A stretch of DNA of 64,000 nt from Allocoleopsis franciscana PCC 7113. Lineage in GTDB: Bacteria; Cyanobacteriota; Cyanobacteriia; Cyanobacteriales; Coleofasciculaceae. The DNA is taken from positions 2,503,224 to 2,567,223 of the forward strand of contig NC_019738.1 in assembly GCF_000317515.1 (NCBI RefSeq), given 5' to 3'. The notes beneath the pieces were generated by a model. It saw only the letters and a program-made list of their open reading frames with translations, ran no database searches and was not told the DNA's origin. Both the position numbers and the translations under genes were made by a program. This document shows, one piece after another, positions 22,384-26,251 of the stretch (position 1 is the first letter of the stretch; each line of letters opens with the position of its first letter).

Positions 22384-23001
22384 ATGAATTCCCAACTTTT
22401 AGATAAACCCCCCCATCAGCCAACAAAGGAAAAACTGGTGACTTTGTATGGCATTACTTGGGAAAAGTTTAAAGCGATAGAAGCACAGCTAGAGGATAAC
22501 CGAGATGTGAGACTGTCATATTTATCAGGGGTATTAGAAATTATGTCACCCATTGGTGAGGAGCATGAGGATATCAAAAGTACTCTTGGCTTGTTGTTAG
22601 AAGCTTATATGAGAGAAAAGAGCATCCGATTTTACAAGCGTGGTGGATTTACTCTAGAAGCACCTGGGTATGCCTCCGGTACACCGGATGAATCGTACAC
22701 TATTGGTAGCAAGAAAGATGTTCCTGATATTGTCATTGAAATCATTGTCACCAGTGGGACTATCAATAGACGAGAACTATTTAAGCCGATGAAAGTCCCT
22801 GAAATTTGGTTCTGGAAGTCTAATCAGCTAAAAGTTTTTCACTTGAAAGAGGGAGATTATGAAGAGGTTTCTCGAAGTACCTTTTTTCCAGATTTAGATT
22901 TAGCTTTATTGCTGCGCTATGTGGGGCATCCCGATCAGTACGATGCCGTGCAGGAGTTTGAAGCTGTGATTCGGGGTGAGGGGGTTGAGAGGAATGATTG
23001 A
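22384..23001 (+). CDS. Uma2-family (DUF820) putative endonuclease
   Basis: 205 residues of the Uma2/DUF820 family, which is hugely expanded in cyanobacteria and has a PD-(D/E)XK-like fold. Characteristic segments are LSYLSGVLEIMSPIGEEHE, RGGFTLEAPG and the catalytic-like stretch VPDIVIEIIVTSGTINR, where an EI/VxxS replaces the usual ExK, plus VPEIWFWKSNQLKVF. The biological role is unknown; many members lie near mobile or defence genes, as here, where the McrB-like operon starts about 100 bases downstream on the opposite strand. Start ATG 22384. Confidence 0.88.
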   Translation: MNSQLLDKPPHQPTKEKLVTLYGITWEKFKAIEAQLEDNRDVRLSYLSGVLEIMSPIGEEHEDIKSTLGLLLEAYMREKSIRFYKRGGFTLEAPGYASGTPDESYTIGSKKDVPDIVIEIIVTSGTINRRELFKPMKVPEIWFWKSNQLKVFHLKEGDYEEVSRSTFFPDLDLALLLRYVGHPDQYDAVQEFEAVIRGEGVERND

Positions 23002-23104
23002 GTTGTGCGATCGCGTATTGTGGAAAAAAGCAGCTCACCTATCACCTAAACGTTTTTAGATTCCTGTGCGTTTCCTAAAGCTCTTTATCAGCTTATCAAT
23101 TGAC

Positions 23105-23476
23105 TCATGCCATTCCCGGAAATCTTATATCTCTTATAAACTCAAGACGAAATGGATTTTCTCCATAGAGATCTCCATATTCACCTCGATATTCGACATC
23201 GTTCCAGGACTCACCCATTCGGATAAAGAGGTATTTAATTGATAAACTTTCTTCATCTAGTTGATCCATAAATATTTCTATAATCTCTATTGGTCTATAA
23301 CTTAGTTGCCAGCTTATATATCTCCAGTAATACAATTTACTACCATTGGTTGAAGTCAATCGCTGTTTGCAACAATCTATAAAATTTCTTAATTCTTCAT
23401 CTTGTTCTATAAACTGCTCGAACTGCCCAACAACATCTAAGTTTAGAATCAGAGCAACATCAGAACAATAACTCAT
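23105..23476 (-). CDS. Small acidic protein, third gene of the McrB-like operon
   Basis: 123 residues, strongly acidic (about 22 D/E against 12 K/R by my count), with no signal peptide or membrane segment. Segments such as YYWRYISWQLSYRPIEIIE and KYLFIRMGESWNDVEYRGE resemble small proteins seen in phage and mobile regions, but I cannot name a family. It begins 8 bases after the stop of the nuclease gene on the same strand, so it is very likely co-transcribed. A regulator, an inhibitor or DNA mimic, or a third functional subunit are all possible; none is demonstrated. Confidence 0.75.
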   Translation of the reverse strand: MSYCSDVALILNLDVVGQFEQFIEQDEELRNFIDCCKQRLTSTNGSKLYYWRYISWQLSYRPIEIIEIFMDQLDEESLSIKYLFIRMGESWNDVEYRGEYGDLYGENPFRLEFIRDIRFPGMA

Positions 23477-23484
23477 TTTTATTT

Positions 23485-24729
23485 TTAAATGAACTGACTT
23501 TTGATTAAATGTTGATAATTTTTATAATTTAACACTGCAACAACATCATTTATATCTTTAGTATTTTCTACACCTTCCCAAATTACAAGAATAGCATGAG
23601 GCAACTTTGCAGATAAGAAGCATCTTTCAAAATCCTTTAAATACCCTAGAACTTTATAAACACTTTCGGTAATATACTGTCGATTTCGAGTTCGCTTAAC
23701 TTCTAATATCTTAAAGTCAAAGTTTTCAGACTGAAACTCAAGTATAATATCTGGCCTTCGCACGCTCACCTCAATCTGATATTTTCGCAATAATTCAGTG
23801 TATAAACTGTTTTGTACGAAGTCAGTAGGTAATGTCTGATAATAGATACGCAAGATTGTATCGCTGTGCTTGTATTGAGCTACTGCCCCCTTGCCATAAC
23901 CAATAAGCCTAAAATTTTCTCGAATCCAACCTGTTTGCTCAAGGCTTGCCATTGTGACGAATAAAATGTAAACCTCATAGAGGGTGTCACGGTTTAAAGG
24001 TTTCAACACTCCCTGAGAAAAACAGTCTTTCAATGTCTCTTGTTCTTCTTGAACAAATAGTCTACGGTAAAGGCGTAAGCTTCTATAGATATTTTTAAAG
24101 TGAGTATTTCGCGCACACCGTACCTTTTGAAGCATCATATCAGTGATTTTTATAGGCAGATCAATTTCACGTAAATAGGTGTTTTTGAGAAAATGATTTG
24201 TTGAGTGATACAAAGAGCGAATTTCTGCTTTCCATTTATTGCTTGACTCGTAAGATAATATTTCTTCTTCTGGAATATTGCCTAAAACTTCGAGACACAA
24301 GTGGTTTATCTGAGTCAACAGATACTTCAATGCTTGCATTTCTGGAAGGTTATAAGTCTTGACAGCCACTCGTGTCATGAATACTGTGGGGTTACTAAAA
24401 CCTGCTCCTAATCTCCGCTTTAAAGTTAGGTTCCAATCGATATTACCTCGAACTGAACCTTTTAGTTCAGTGGTCATCCTATCGGTTGATTGTGCTAAGC
24501 GTCGCAAAATTTGCGGGGTAGATATTTTGACACTTTTTTGAAGAGATTCAGATAGGAGAAAGTAGATAAGTTGCAATAGACGCAACTCGCGACGATTAAG
24601 TTGAGCAAGATTGCAGATAATCTGTTCAGGTTTATGAATAGCGGCGTTTTCCTGAACAAAAAGCCATAGATACTTTTCAACGAAGCTTAATACTTCGTTG
24701 TAATCCTCATCTGTCCAACAATCACTCAT
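23485..24729 (-). CDS. PD-(D/E)XK nuclease subunit of an McrBC-like restriction system
   Basis: 414 residues. The C-terminal part holds a PD-(D/E)XK core: D327 in SVRRPDIILEF, then E343 and K345 in FKILEVKRTRNRQY, followed by an amphipathic helix. The N-terminal 300 residues are helical, with an RGNIDWNLTLKRRL segment (94-107) reminiscent of DUF2357/McrC-like partners of McrB-type motors. It starts 10 bases after the stop of the AAA+ gene, so the two proteins are probably made in a fixed ratio. It should cut DNA when the NTPase is engaged. It differs from classic McrC, so the exact family needs profile searching. Confidence 0.8.
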   Translation of the reverse strand: MSDCWTDEDYNEVLSFVEKYLWLFVQENAAIHKPEQIICNLAQLNRRELRLLQLIYFLLSESLQKSVKISTPQILRRLAQSTDRMTTELKGSVRGNIDWNLTLKRRLGAGFSNPTVFMTRVAVKTYNLPEMQALKYLLTQINHLCLEVLGNIPEEEILSYESSNKWKAEIRSLYHSTNHFLKNTYLREIDLPIKITDMMLQKVRCARNTHFKNIYRSLRLYRRLFVQEEQETLKDCFSQGVLKPLNRDTLYEVYILFVTMASLEQTGWIRENFRLIGYGKGAVAQYKHSDTILRIYYQTLPTDFVQNSLYTELLRKYQIEVSVRRPDIILEFQSENFDFKILEVKRTRNRQYITESVYKVLGYLKDFERCFLSAKLPHAILVIWEGVENTKDINDVVAVLNYKNYQHLIKSQFI

Positions 24730-24739
24730 AATTTATACT

Positions 24740-26116
24740 CTATGAATCAAATTGCCATGCTCCTGGTTCTATTTCAAACAATTCTGTTAGATACTGCTTG
24801 ATTTGGAATTGGTGTTCTTTATCACCAAAGTCACTAGCAGCATTATCAAAAAATTCGACAATTGTCTCTACGGCTAAACCCTCAAACTGAGGTAAAACAT
24901 AGGCAACGAAGCTTTCAAAGAATGCCTCTGGGCTACTTCGTTCTTTCATGTAATTTAAAATATCAATAAGAATAGCAGCACCTATTTTACGTGGTGTAAT
25001 ACTCAGCAATCGCTTAATCTTATCTGCACTAGTAGCGTTCAAATGTCCGTCTTGGACTCGTCCATCAATAATTTTATGTAACTCTGCTGTAGAGGGATTA
25101 TTAACATGGACAAATCCAAAGCGGCGCATAAAGGCATAAGAGAGGGAAAACAGAGAGTTTTTATCAAACGTGTTCATCGTTCCAATGATGCGCCAGTTAT
25201 CACCAACAAAAAAAGTTGCAGACTGCTCATCATAGTAACTGCTCAATCCTATTGCGTGACATATGTTAATTGGCTTTCCCTGATTATTATAGAAGGGTAA
25301 CTCAACTTCCTGCCCCGAAAGGATGGTAAGTAATTGTCCAAAAGATTTGTCTACATCAGCACGGTTAATTTCGTCTATAATCAACCATTTGTTTTCGCTG
25401 ATAGCGCGTAACACAATACCAGGGGTAAAAACCAGTTCTTTTTCAGGTTGCGGCATATAGCCACCAATAGTATCAAAAGTTGTCCAGTCAGATGTGGCTG
25501 TTGTAAGAATATAACCCGATATGAACTTTGTTTTAACAGCTTGGTCACTTGCATTGATAGCAATAGTCGTTTTGCCAGTTCCCGGTTGTCCCGTCAAAAT
25601 CAAATGCCGACTTGCGTTGATGATGGTAATGATTTGGTGAATAGGTGTGTCTTCAATTAAAATTTGGCCTTTGATTGCTTCAATTGATTCAGGAAGGAAT
25701 TTTTCAACAAATTCCTCTCTAACCTCTTTCTCAATTATCTCGGAGTCAGTTACTTCTACATCTGATAATGTGGTTTCGGTAATATAGTGGTTGAGGTTGA
25801 ATTGGTTCTTGAAACTACCCCACTCCAACCGAAGGCGCTCTCGTCCTTTCTCTGTGATTTTCCAAATGCCCTTTTGTGAACCATCCATCTCGCCTTGCTT
25901 CCGAAGCTGAGATGCTGCAAATTGTAAATCTTCAATCCAGAGGATACGACCACTAGTGGGATGACGTTCCATCCTCATATCAGCAAAACCCATTGTTTCA
26001 GCAACAAGACTAAGCAATTGCTGAGAAAATTTTACAGCTCCACCAAGTTCTACAAGGCTCTTGAGTAAAGGAAGCTGGTATTCTTTGCGTGGAATCCTTG
26101 ATACTTTGTAGGTCAT
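24740..26116 (-). CDS. Mrr_N-McrB-like AAA+ NTPase of a restriction/defence system
   Basis: 458 residues from ATG 26116; a TTG five codons upstream has no better signal. Residues about 14-100 look like an Mrr N-terminal winged helix (YQLPLLKSLVELGG ... GIWKITEKG), a likely DNA-reading domain. The AAA+ core has Walker A GQPGTGKT (181-188), Walker B LIIDEINRAD (250-259), the McrB-type signature GTMNTFDKN (317-325; McrB has MNTADRS) and arginines at 336-337. McrB proteins form hexamers that translocate DNA and drive a partner nuclease. It is the first gene of a three-gene operon. GTP use is inferred from the McrB signature only. Confidence 0.88.
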   Translation of the reverse strand: MTYKVSRIPRKEYQLPLLKSLVELGGAVKFSQQLLSLVAETMGFADMRMERHPTSGRILWIEDLQFAASQLRKQGEMDGSQKGIWKITEKGRERLRLEWGSFKNQFNLNHYITETTLSDVEVTDSEIIEKEVREEFVEKFLPESIEAIKGQILIEDTPIHQIITIINASRHLILTGQPGTGKTTIAINASDQAVKTKFISGYILTTATSDWTTFDTIGGYMPQPEKELVFTPGIVLRAISENKWLIIDEINRADVDKSFGQLLTILSGQEVELPFYNNQGKPINICHAIGLSSYYDEQSATFFVGDNWRIIGTMNTFDKNSLFSLSYAFMRRFGFVHVNNPSTAELHKIIDGRVQDGHLNATSADKIKRLLSITPRKIGAAILIDILNYMKERSSPEAFFESFVAYVLPQFEGLAVETIVEFFDNAASDFGDKEHQFQIKQYLTELFEIEPGAWQFDS

Positions 26117-26251
26117 CAGAGAAGCTAACAAAATCGAAGTGTGTCATTACCTTCCATCATCCCAGACTCCCAAACACGCCCCCGTATTACGAATTACCTC
26201 AATTCGTTAAAAATTCCCCAACCTAGTCCAATCAGAACACCCCAAGCGTGA

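What the first reader, a model, noticed from the sequence alone, without database searches (positions are those of the whole stretch)
23105..26116. Three-gene McrB-like operon with a non-classical nuclease and a small acidic third protein
Seen: three minus-strand genes with gaps of only 10 and 8 bases. The first has a winged-helix-like N-terminus resembling Mrr_N fused to an AAA+ core with McrB-type motifs (GTMNTFDKN). The second carries a C-terminal D327...E343-x-K345 nuclease core. The third is a 123-residue acidic protein. Known: McrBC-type systems pair an AAA+ GTPase with a PD-(D/E)XK partner to restrict foreign or modified DNA. Inference: this is a type IV-like or related anti-phage system in which the acidic protein is an added component. 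The Mrr_N-AAA+ fusion and constant third gene would set it apart from classic McrBC.
Basis: partly seen in the sequence, partly recalled or inferred. Interest (0 to 1): 0.8.

Follow-up and report, generated by a model that had tools for sequence, protein, structure and literature searches.

The report
Divergent McrBC restriction operon, unconserved third gene
This is a DNA-cutting bacterial immune system of the McrBC type, built from a ring-shaped motor and a nuclease so diverged that standard databases miss it, sitting where a related genome carries a different DNA-restriction system; the small third gene is not a regular part of it.

Summary
The three genes are real and exactly placed. Gene 1 is Mrr_N (winged helix) plus an McrB-like AAA core with the NxxD signature (MNTFDKNSL). 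Gene 2 matches nothing in Pfam, NCBIfam or PADLOC. However, its AlphaFold model (pLDDT 90) matches McrC chains best of all solved structures (Foldseek E 9.5e-9). All 64 relatives aligned keep E252, P326-D327 and E343-x-K345, and always a basic residue at 207 (63 R, 1 K), at or next to McrC's GTPase-triggering residue. So gene 2 is a divergent McrC.

The pair is an old, mobile lineage: 77 of 80 related loci from Bacteria and Archaea have the nuclease directly downstream. It forms a branch separate from the sampled classical McrBs. Its N-termini are swapped freely (Mrr_N, MrcB_N, EVE and others). In a same-genus genome the same chromosomal slot holds a type II R-M system.

The third gene is not constant. 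It occurs in only two cyanobacterial loci, although it is under purifying selection there. The Mrr_N-McrB fusion is also not new in kind.

Best reading: a type IV-like, modification-dependent restriction system from a poorly annotated McrBC branch. New variant of a known kind.

The parts
24740..26116 (-). Gene 1: McrB-like AAA+ NTPase with an N-terminal Mrr_N winged-helix domain (457 aa)
   Evidence: best PDB sequence match is E. coli McrB 6hz4 at E 7.6e-12
25829..26083 (-). Mrr_N domain (residues 12-96), predicted DNA-sensing module
   Evidence: PF14338 E 9.3e-15
25118..25606 (-). AAA_5 core (residues 171-333)
   Evidence: PF07728 E 5e-16; best AAA_5 match in the whole genome
25151..25177 (-). 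McrB signature MNTFDKNSL (NxxD, followed by K-x-S instead of R-S)
   Evidence: sequence; survey of relatives; canonical consensus MNxxDRS in PMC7680126
23485..24729 (-). Gene 2: divergent McrC-like protein, finger domain plus PD-(D/E)XK nuclease (414 aa)
24337..24459 (-). Finger stalk and tip, GSVRGNIDW..T..R...E (residues 91-131), homologous to McrC RGR..W region
   Evidence: hhalign; G95 and T102 invariant in 64 sequences
24109..24111 (-). R207, always basic (63 R, 1 K of 64); candidate equivalent of EcMcrC K157 / TgMcrC R263
   Evidence: mapping within one column in a low-confidence alignment; role of K157/R263 from PMC7680126
23974..23976 (-). E252, invariant acidic residue of the nuclease fold
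23749..23754 (-). P326-D327 of the PD-(D/E)XK motif, invariant
23695..23703 (-). E343-V-K345 of the PD-(D/E)XK motif, invariant E and K
23105..23476 (-). Gene 3: 123-aa acidic protein, clade-restricted accessory gene of unknown fold
   Evidence: homologue only at L020/G018; pN 0.35 against pS 0.77

Best explanation
The operon encodes a divergent McrBC-type, probably modification-dependent (type IV-like) restriction system. Gene 1 assembles into an AAA+ hexamer whose Mrr_N winged helix recognises a feature of foreign DNA, most likely a modified base (inferred). Gene 2 is its McrC: its finger enters the hexamer and a conserved Arg (R207) triggers NTP hydrolysis, and its PD-(D/E)XK domain cuts the DNA after translocation (inferred by homology). 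Shown here: the architecture, intact catalytic residues, constant pairing of genes 1 and 2 across two domains of life, McrC fold, and exchange with an R-M system in the same chromosomal slot. Gene 3 is a lineage-specific add-on under purifying selection, perhaps a regulator or inhibitor, and is not required by the family.
For: Fold: P0002 model pLDDT 90.3; Foldseek's top PDB hits are the McrC chains 6hz4_M, 6ut6_G, 6ut7_G and 6ut5_G, E 9.5e-9 to 2e-3, with the BsuMI YdjA-YdiS model fourth. VIA-align Z 10.9 to E. coli McrC over 263 residues; the finger domain alone superposes on TgMcrC at 2.9 A over 138 residues, Z 8.6. Profile alignment with McrC at the RGR..W region and nuclease core. DUF2357 is hit by 4 of 64 relatives, best E 2.6e-5. 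E252, P326, D327, E343, K345 invariant in 64; R207 always basic. Gene 1 carries NxxD and matches McrB in the PDB. The family branches with canonical McrB away from MoxR (SH-aLRT 100) as a separate branch (86). Nuclease directly downstream in 77 of 80 loci. N-termini include MrcB_N 11, EVE 11 and Mrr_N 4 of 78, as expected of swappable sensor modules. Neighbours include C5 and N6 MTases, NgoFVII and HNH nucleases and HsdM. In G001 the slot between the Uma2 gene and thiC, with flanks 90-94% identical, holds a type II MTase plus REase. GC 0.374 against 0.45 for the window. No methyltransferase in this operon.
Against: No activity is shown. Sequence similarity of gene 2 to McrC is below normal thresholds (hhalign probability 67-74 in pairwise mode). 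The whole-chain superposition has high rmsd (about 16 A) and low TM-scores, presumably because the two domains are oriented differently. The post-NxxD signature differs from canonical MNxxDRS (here DKxS). Two AAA members (L037, L051) have no nuclease downstream. Some family members do have an adjacent C5 methyltransferase (L092, L036), so the type IV assignment cannot be carried to the whole family. The ligand of Mrr_N here is unknown.
Confidence: 0.8

Rival explanations
1. It is the restriction half of an R-M system of the LlaJI/BsuMI sort: the McrB-McrC complex cuts unmethylated DNA and a methyltransferase encoded elsewhere protects the host.
For: BsuMI YdjA-YdiS is the fourth structural match. 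In L092 (Nostoc) and L036 (Brevibacillus) a C5 methyltransferase gene ends 13-22 bases upstream of the family AAA gene. The census reports methyltransferase-associated McrBC branches (PMC11090510).
Against: No methyltransferase lies in or next to this operon; neighbours are Uma2, M15 peptidase and thiC. The closest locus L020 also shows none among its ORFs. The N-terminal module is Mrr_N, and most sampled neighbours are not methyltransferases.
Confidence: 0.13
2. A true three-component system in which the acidic protein is an obligate part, for example a DNA-mimic governor of the nuclease.
For: The gene keeps its place 6-8 bases downstream of gene 2 in both cyanobacterial loci, is strongly acidic in both (pI 4.4) and is under purifying selection.
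Against: Absent from 79 of 80 related loci, including the Chloroflexi locus L021 whose AAA protein is 62% identical. No homologues in plasmids, phages, viral contigs or 386 phylum genomes other than the window's own. It has no family and no confident fold (pLDDT 58).
Confidence: 0.1
3. The AAA+/nuclease pair acts against RNA or as an abortive-infection switch, like CoCoNuTs, rather than as a DNA restriction enzyme.
For: Some relatives fuse the core to CHAT, protein kinase or EAD7 domains.
Against: NxxD, not the NxD motif that marks CoCoNuTs; catalytic PD-(D/E)XK intact in all 64 relatives; no RNase domain or helicase gene in this operon.
Confidence: 0.05

Closest known systems
E. coli / Thermococcus gammatolerans McrBC (type IV restriction)
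   Same: AAA+ McrB-like core with NxxD motif followed directly by an McrC with finger and PD-(D/E)XK domains; variable N-terminal sensor; defence-gene setting
   Different: Gene 2 is not recognised by the McrC Pfam models (PF10117, PF09823) at threshold; signature MNxxDKxSL instead of MNxxDRSL; separate branch in the AAA tree; Mrr_N instead of the DUF3578 or YTH-like sensor; additional small gene
BsuMI YdiS-YdjA and LlaJI (McrBC-like subunits of R-M systems)
   Same: McrB-like plus McrC-like pair; YdjA-YdiS is the fourth structural hit
   Different: No adjacent methyltransferase here; RE_LlaJI not matched by P0002 or among the families listed for its relatives
CoCoNuTs (coiled-coil nuclease tandems)
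   Same: McrBC-derived AAA+ plus McrC homologue
   Different: NxxD not NxD; no tandem nucleases, helicase or RNA-binding domains in the operon
wH-McrB-like NTPase fusions (PMC11037411)
   Same: Winged helix fused to an McrB-like NTPase, proposed to read modified DNA
   Different: Those are DpnI-type wH domains, some with their own nuclease; here the Pfam family is Mrr_N and the nuclease is a separate McrC-like gene

Membership tests
McrBC (type IV restriction) | AAA+ domain of the AAA_5 group with the McrB NxxD signature | tested here: met
   PF07728 E 5e-16; MNTFDKNSL; groups with McrB against MoxR, SH-aLRT 100
McrBC (type IV restriction) | Full consensus MNxxDRS stated for McrB homologues (PMC7680126) | tested here: not met
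   MNxxDKxS in this family, K invariant in A2 and R in one of the loci surveyed; the census itself defines the family by NxxD/NxD/NxxxD (PMC11090510)
McrBC (type IV restriction) | McrC partner: finger/DUF2357 region plus PD-(D/E)XK nuclease domain | tested here: met
   top structural hits are McrC chains; catalytic residues invariant
McrBC (type IV restriction) | McrC recognised by PF10117 or PF09823 | tested here: not met
   P0002 has no Pfam hit; no PF10117 match in this genome; 4 of 64 relatives hit DUF2357
McrBC (type IV restriction) | mcrB immediately followed by mcrC | tested here: met
   window gap 10 bases; 77 of 80 loci, median start 8 bases before the end of gene 1
McrBC (type IV restriction) | GTP-dependent, modification-dependent DNA cleavage | not testable with these tools
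   needs biochemistry
CoCoNuT | NxD signature in the GTPase | tested here: not met
   NxxD (N315-T-F-D318)
LlaJI/BsuMI-type R-M | cognate methyltransferase gene in the same cluster | tested here: not met
   none adjacent in the window or in L020
Three-component system with constant acidic subunit | third gene present across homologous loci | tested here: not met
   only L020 of 80 loci

The most novel reading that the evidence does not exclude
A major McrBC lineage, marked by MNxxDKxSL and a McrC that standard profiles miss, spans haloarchaea, DPANN archaea, Bacillota, Chloroflexi and a few Cyanobacteria. It swaps sensor and even CHAT/EAD signalling modules onto one motor, and its cyanobacterial members have added a fast-evolving acidic governor protein that controls the nuclease.
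Probability: 0.15. Interest if true: 0.6.

Novelty: new variant of a known kind. Interest (0 to 1): 0.4.

Why it matters
A two-gene restriction lineage present across Bacteria and Archaea gets no McrC or defence-system call from the tools used here, so restriction capacity of haloarchaea, Bacillota and some cyanobacteria is probably under-counted. The family gives a ready series of natural sensor swaps (Mrr_N, MrcB_N, EVE, others) on one motor, useful for finding what each sensor reads and for explaining poor transformability of these hosts. It also removes a false lead: the acidic third protein does not define a new three-part system.

Tried and rejected
Constant third component: rejected. 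Third protein as a phage or plasmid protein family: no match to PHROGs below E 0.05 or to phage and plasmid records. Fold of the third protein: two-sequence model pLDDT 58, too poor for a structure search. Nuclease in the PDB by sequence profile: no hit. Viral-contig scans for P0002 and P0003: none; the AAA scan of viral contigs gave only generic AAA hits without the nuclease. Global hhalign of the nuclease to McrC failed; local alignment worked. The upstream side of thiC is not syntenic in other genera, so the slot comparison rests on one same-genus genome. A Pfam call with wrong coordinates failed. CoCoNuT membership rejected on the motif. Whether the published census already contains this branch could not be decided: its figures and supplements are not held here.

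Full report
WHAT IS THERE. Protein 1 has Mrr_N (E 9e-15) and AAA_5 (E 5e-16), and its best PDB sequence match is E. coli McrB (6hz4, E 7.6e-12). Protein 2 has no match in Pfam, PADLOC, NCBIfam or PHROGs. Protein 3 has none that is significant. Its pI is 4.4.

RELATIVES. Searching with protein 2 found one close locus in the same family (67%, with the third gene at 46%). It also found distant relatives on a Priestia plasmid and on 22 other plasmids, mostly haloarchaeal where the organism is named. In five of the six plasmid regions opened, the gene directly upstream encodes an AAA ATPase; in the sixth (L018) the AAA gene is missing next to a transposase. An alignment of those AAA proteins was used for one scan of 84,980 prokaryotic genomes. 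It gave 184 candidates, of which the best 80 were kept. Selection was by motif (ATMNT[FYL]DK or S[YF]AFMRR[FW]), so motif conservation in that set is partly built in. The nuclease was not part of the query, so its co-occurrence is independent evidence: 77 of 80 loci carry it directly downstream. The exceptions are L031 (contig end), L037 and L051.

THE NUCLEASE IS A McrC. Over 64 aligned relatives G95, T102, E252, P326, D327, E343 and K345 are invariant. The AlphaFold model has pLDDT 90. Foldseek against the PDB puts McrC chains at ranks 1, 2, 3 and 5 and the BsuMI YdjA-YdiS model at rank 4. VIA-align gives Z 10.9 over 263 residues to E. coli McrC. For the finger domain alone it gives 2.9 A over 138 residues to TgMcrC. 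Whole-chain rmsd is large (about 16 A), as expected if the two domains are set at different angles, so the claim rests on domains. Position 207 is basic in all 64 (63 R, 1 K). It lies at, or one column from, EcMcrC K157 in a low-confidence alignment. K157 and TgMcrC R263 are the residues that trigger McrB hydrolysis (PMC7680126). Equivalence of R207 is therefore inferred.

THE MOTOR. NxxD, the signature used by the McrBC census (PMC11090510), is present. What follows it differs: DKxSL in place of DRSL. In a quick ML tree the family (83 rows) and canonical McrB (24 rows) each fall on one side of a branch (86 and 99) and join against MoxR (100). The canonical set is mostly cyanobacterial plus E. 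coli, so the tree does not test the other census clades. N-terminal modules vary: MrcB_N 11, EVE 11, Mrr_N 4, HVO_A0261_N 3, HI_0552 2 and CHAT 1 of 78. Mrr_N itself was seen directly in the window, L021 and L046; L020, whose N-terminus is 57% identical to the window's, is presumably the fourth.

THE THIRD GENE. Among the 80 loci only L020, the same locus as G018, has a homologue. None was found in 386 genomes of the phylum other than the window's own, in plasmids, phages or viral contigs. It is a real gene (pN 0.35, pS 0.77) but evolves faster than genes 1 and 2, and it is clade-restricted. Other members have other downstream genes, such as an HNH endonuclease in Gracilibacillus or HsdM in Alkalibacillus.

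SETTING. The operon lies between a Uma2 gene and the TPP riboswitch/thiC, with GC 0.374 against 0.45 for the window. In the same-genus genome G001 the flanks are 90-94% identical. There the 2.28 kb slot holds a C5 methyltransferase (PADLOC MTase_II E 1e-127) and a convergent REase_II (E 2.5e-9). This is a single comparison, but it is a direct swap of one restriction system for another. The family is rare in the phylum: 1 of 292 genomes. By contrast, PF10117 McrC is in 47 of 195 genomes of the order and absent from this genome.

MECHANISM. By homology, Mrr_N binds a feature of foreign DNA, the AAA+ hexamer translocates using NTP, the McrC-like finger stimulates hydrolysis, and the PD-(D/E)XK domain cuts. 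The first and last steps rest on family knowledge, not on data for this protein. A methyltransferase-linked sub-branch exists in the family (L036, L092), so the type IV label is given to this operon only.

VERDICT. New variant of a known kind: a McrBC system from a poorly annotated branch, with a lineage-specific extra gene. Whether the 2024 census already holds this branch could not be checked.

Noticed in passing
window 23030-26150; G001:C34 (L145): Defence-gene slot between the Uma2 gene and the TPP riboswitch/thiC: McrBC-like operon here, a type II R-M pair in a same-genus genome, with 90-94% identical flanks.
   Followed up: yes
L037:1123-5586, L050:3139-7083, L038:766-6999: Chloroflexi members fuse the McrB-like core to protein kinase + CHAT (L037, no McrC partner), CHAT (L050), or N_BRCA1_IG + TPR + EAD7 (L038): signs of recruitment into conflict or cell-death systems.
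   Followed up: partly
L048:8261-9127, L053:8168-9034, L054:8168-9034: In Gracilibacillus an HNH_2 endonuclease gene overlaps the end of the McrC-like gene by a few bases (HNH_2 confirmed for L048 and L053; L054 by sequence likeness), a possible extra nuclease component.
   Followed up: partly
L092:4273-5482, L036:4153-5359: A C5 cytosine methyltransferase gene sits 13-22 bases upstream of the family AAA gene in Nostoc sp. CMAA1605 and Brevibacillus thermoruber; the two are sisters in the AAA tree, suggesting an R-M-like sub-branch.
   Followed up: partly
relatives of P0002 (alignment A4): 13 of 64 McrC-like proteins weakly match DUF6826 (PF20713), best E 2.9e-5, hinting at what that unknown domain may be.
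   Followed up: no
window 22384-23001 (+): A Uma2-family putative endonuclease gene borders the slot and is retained in G001.
   Followed up: no
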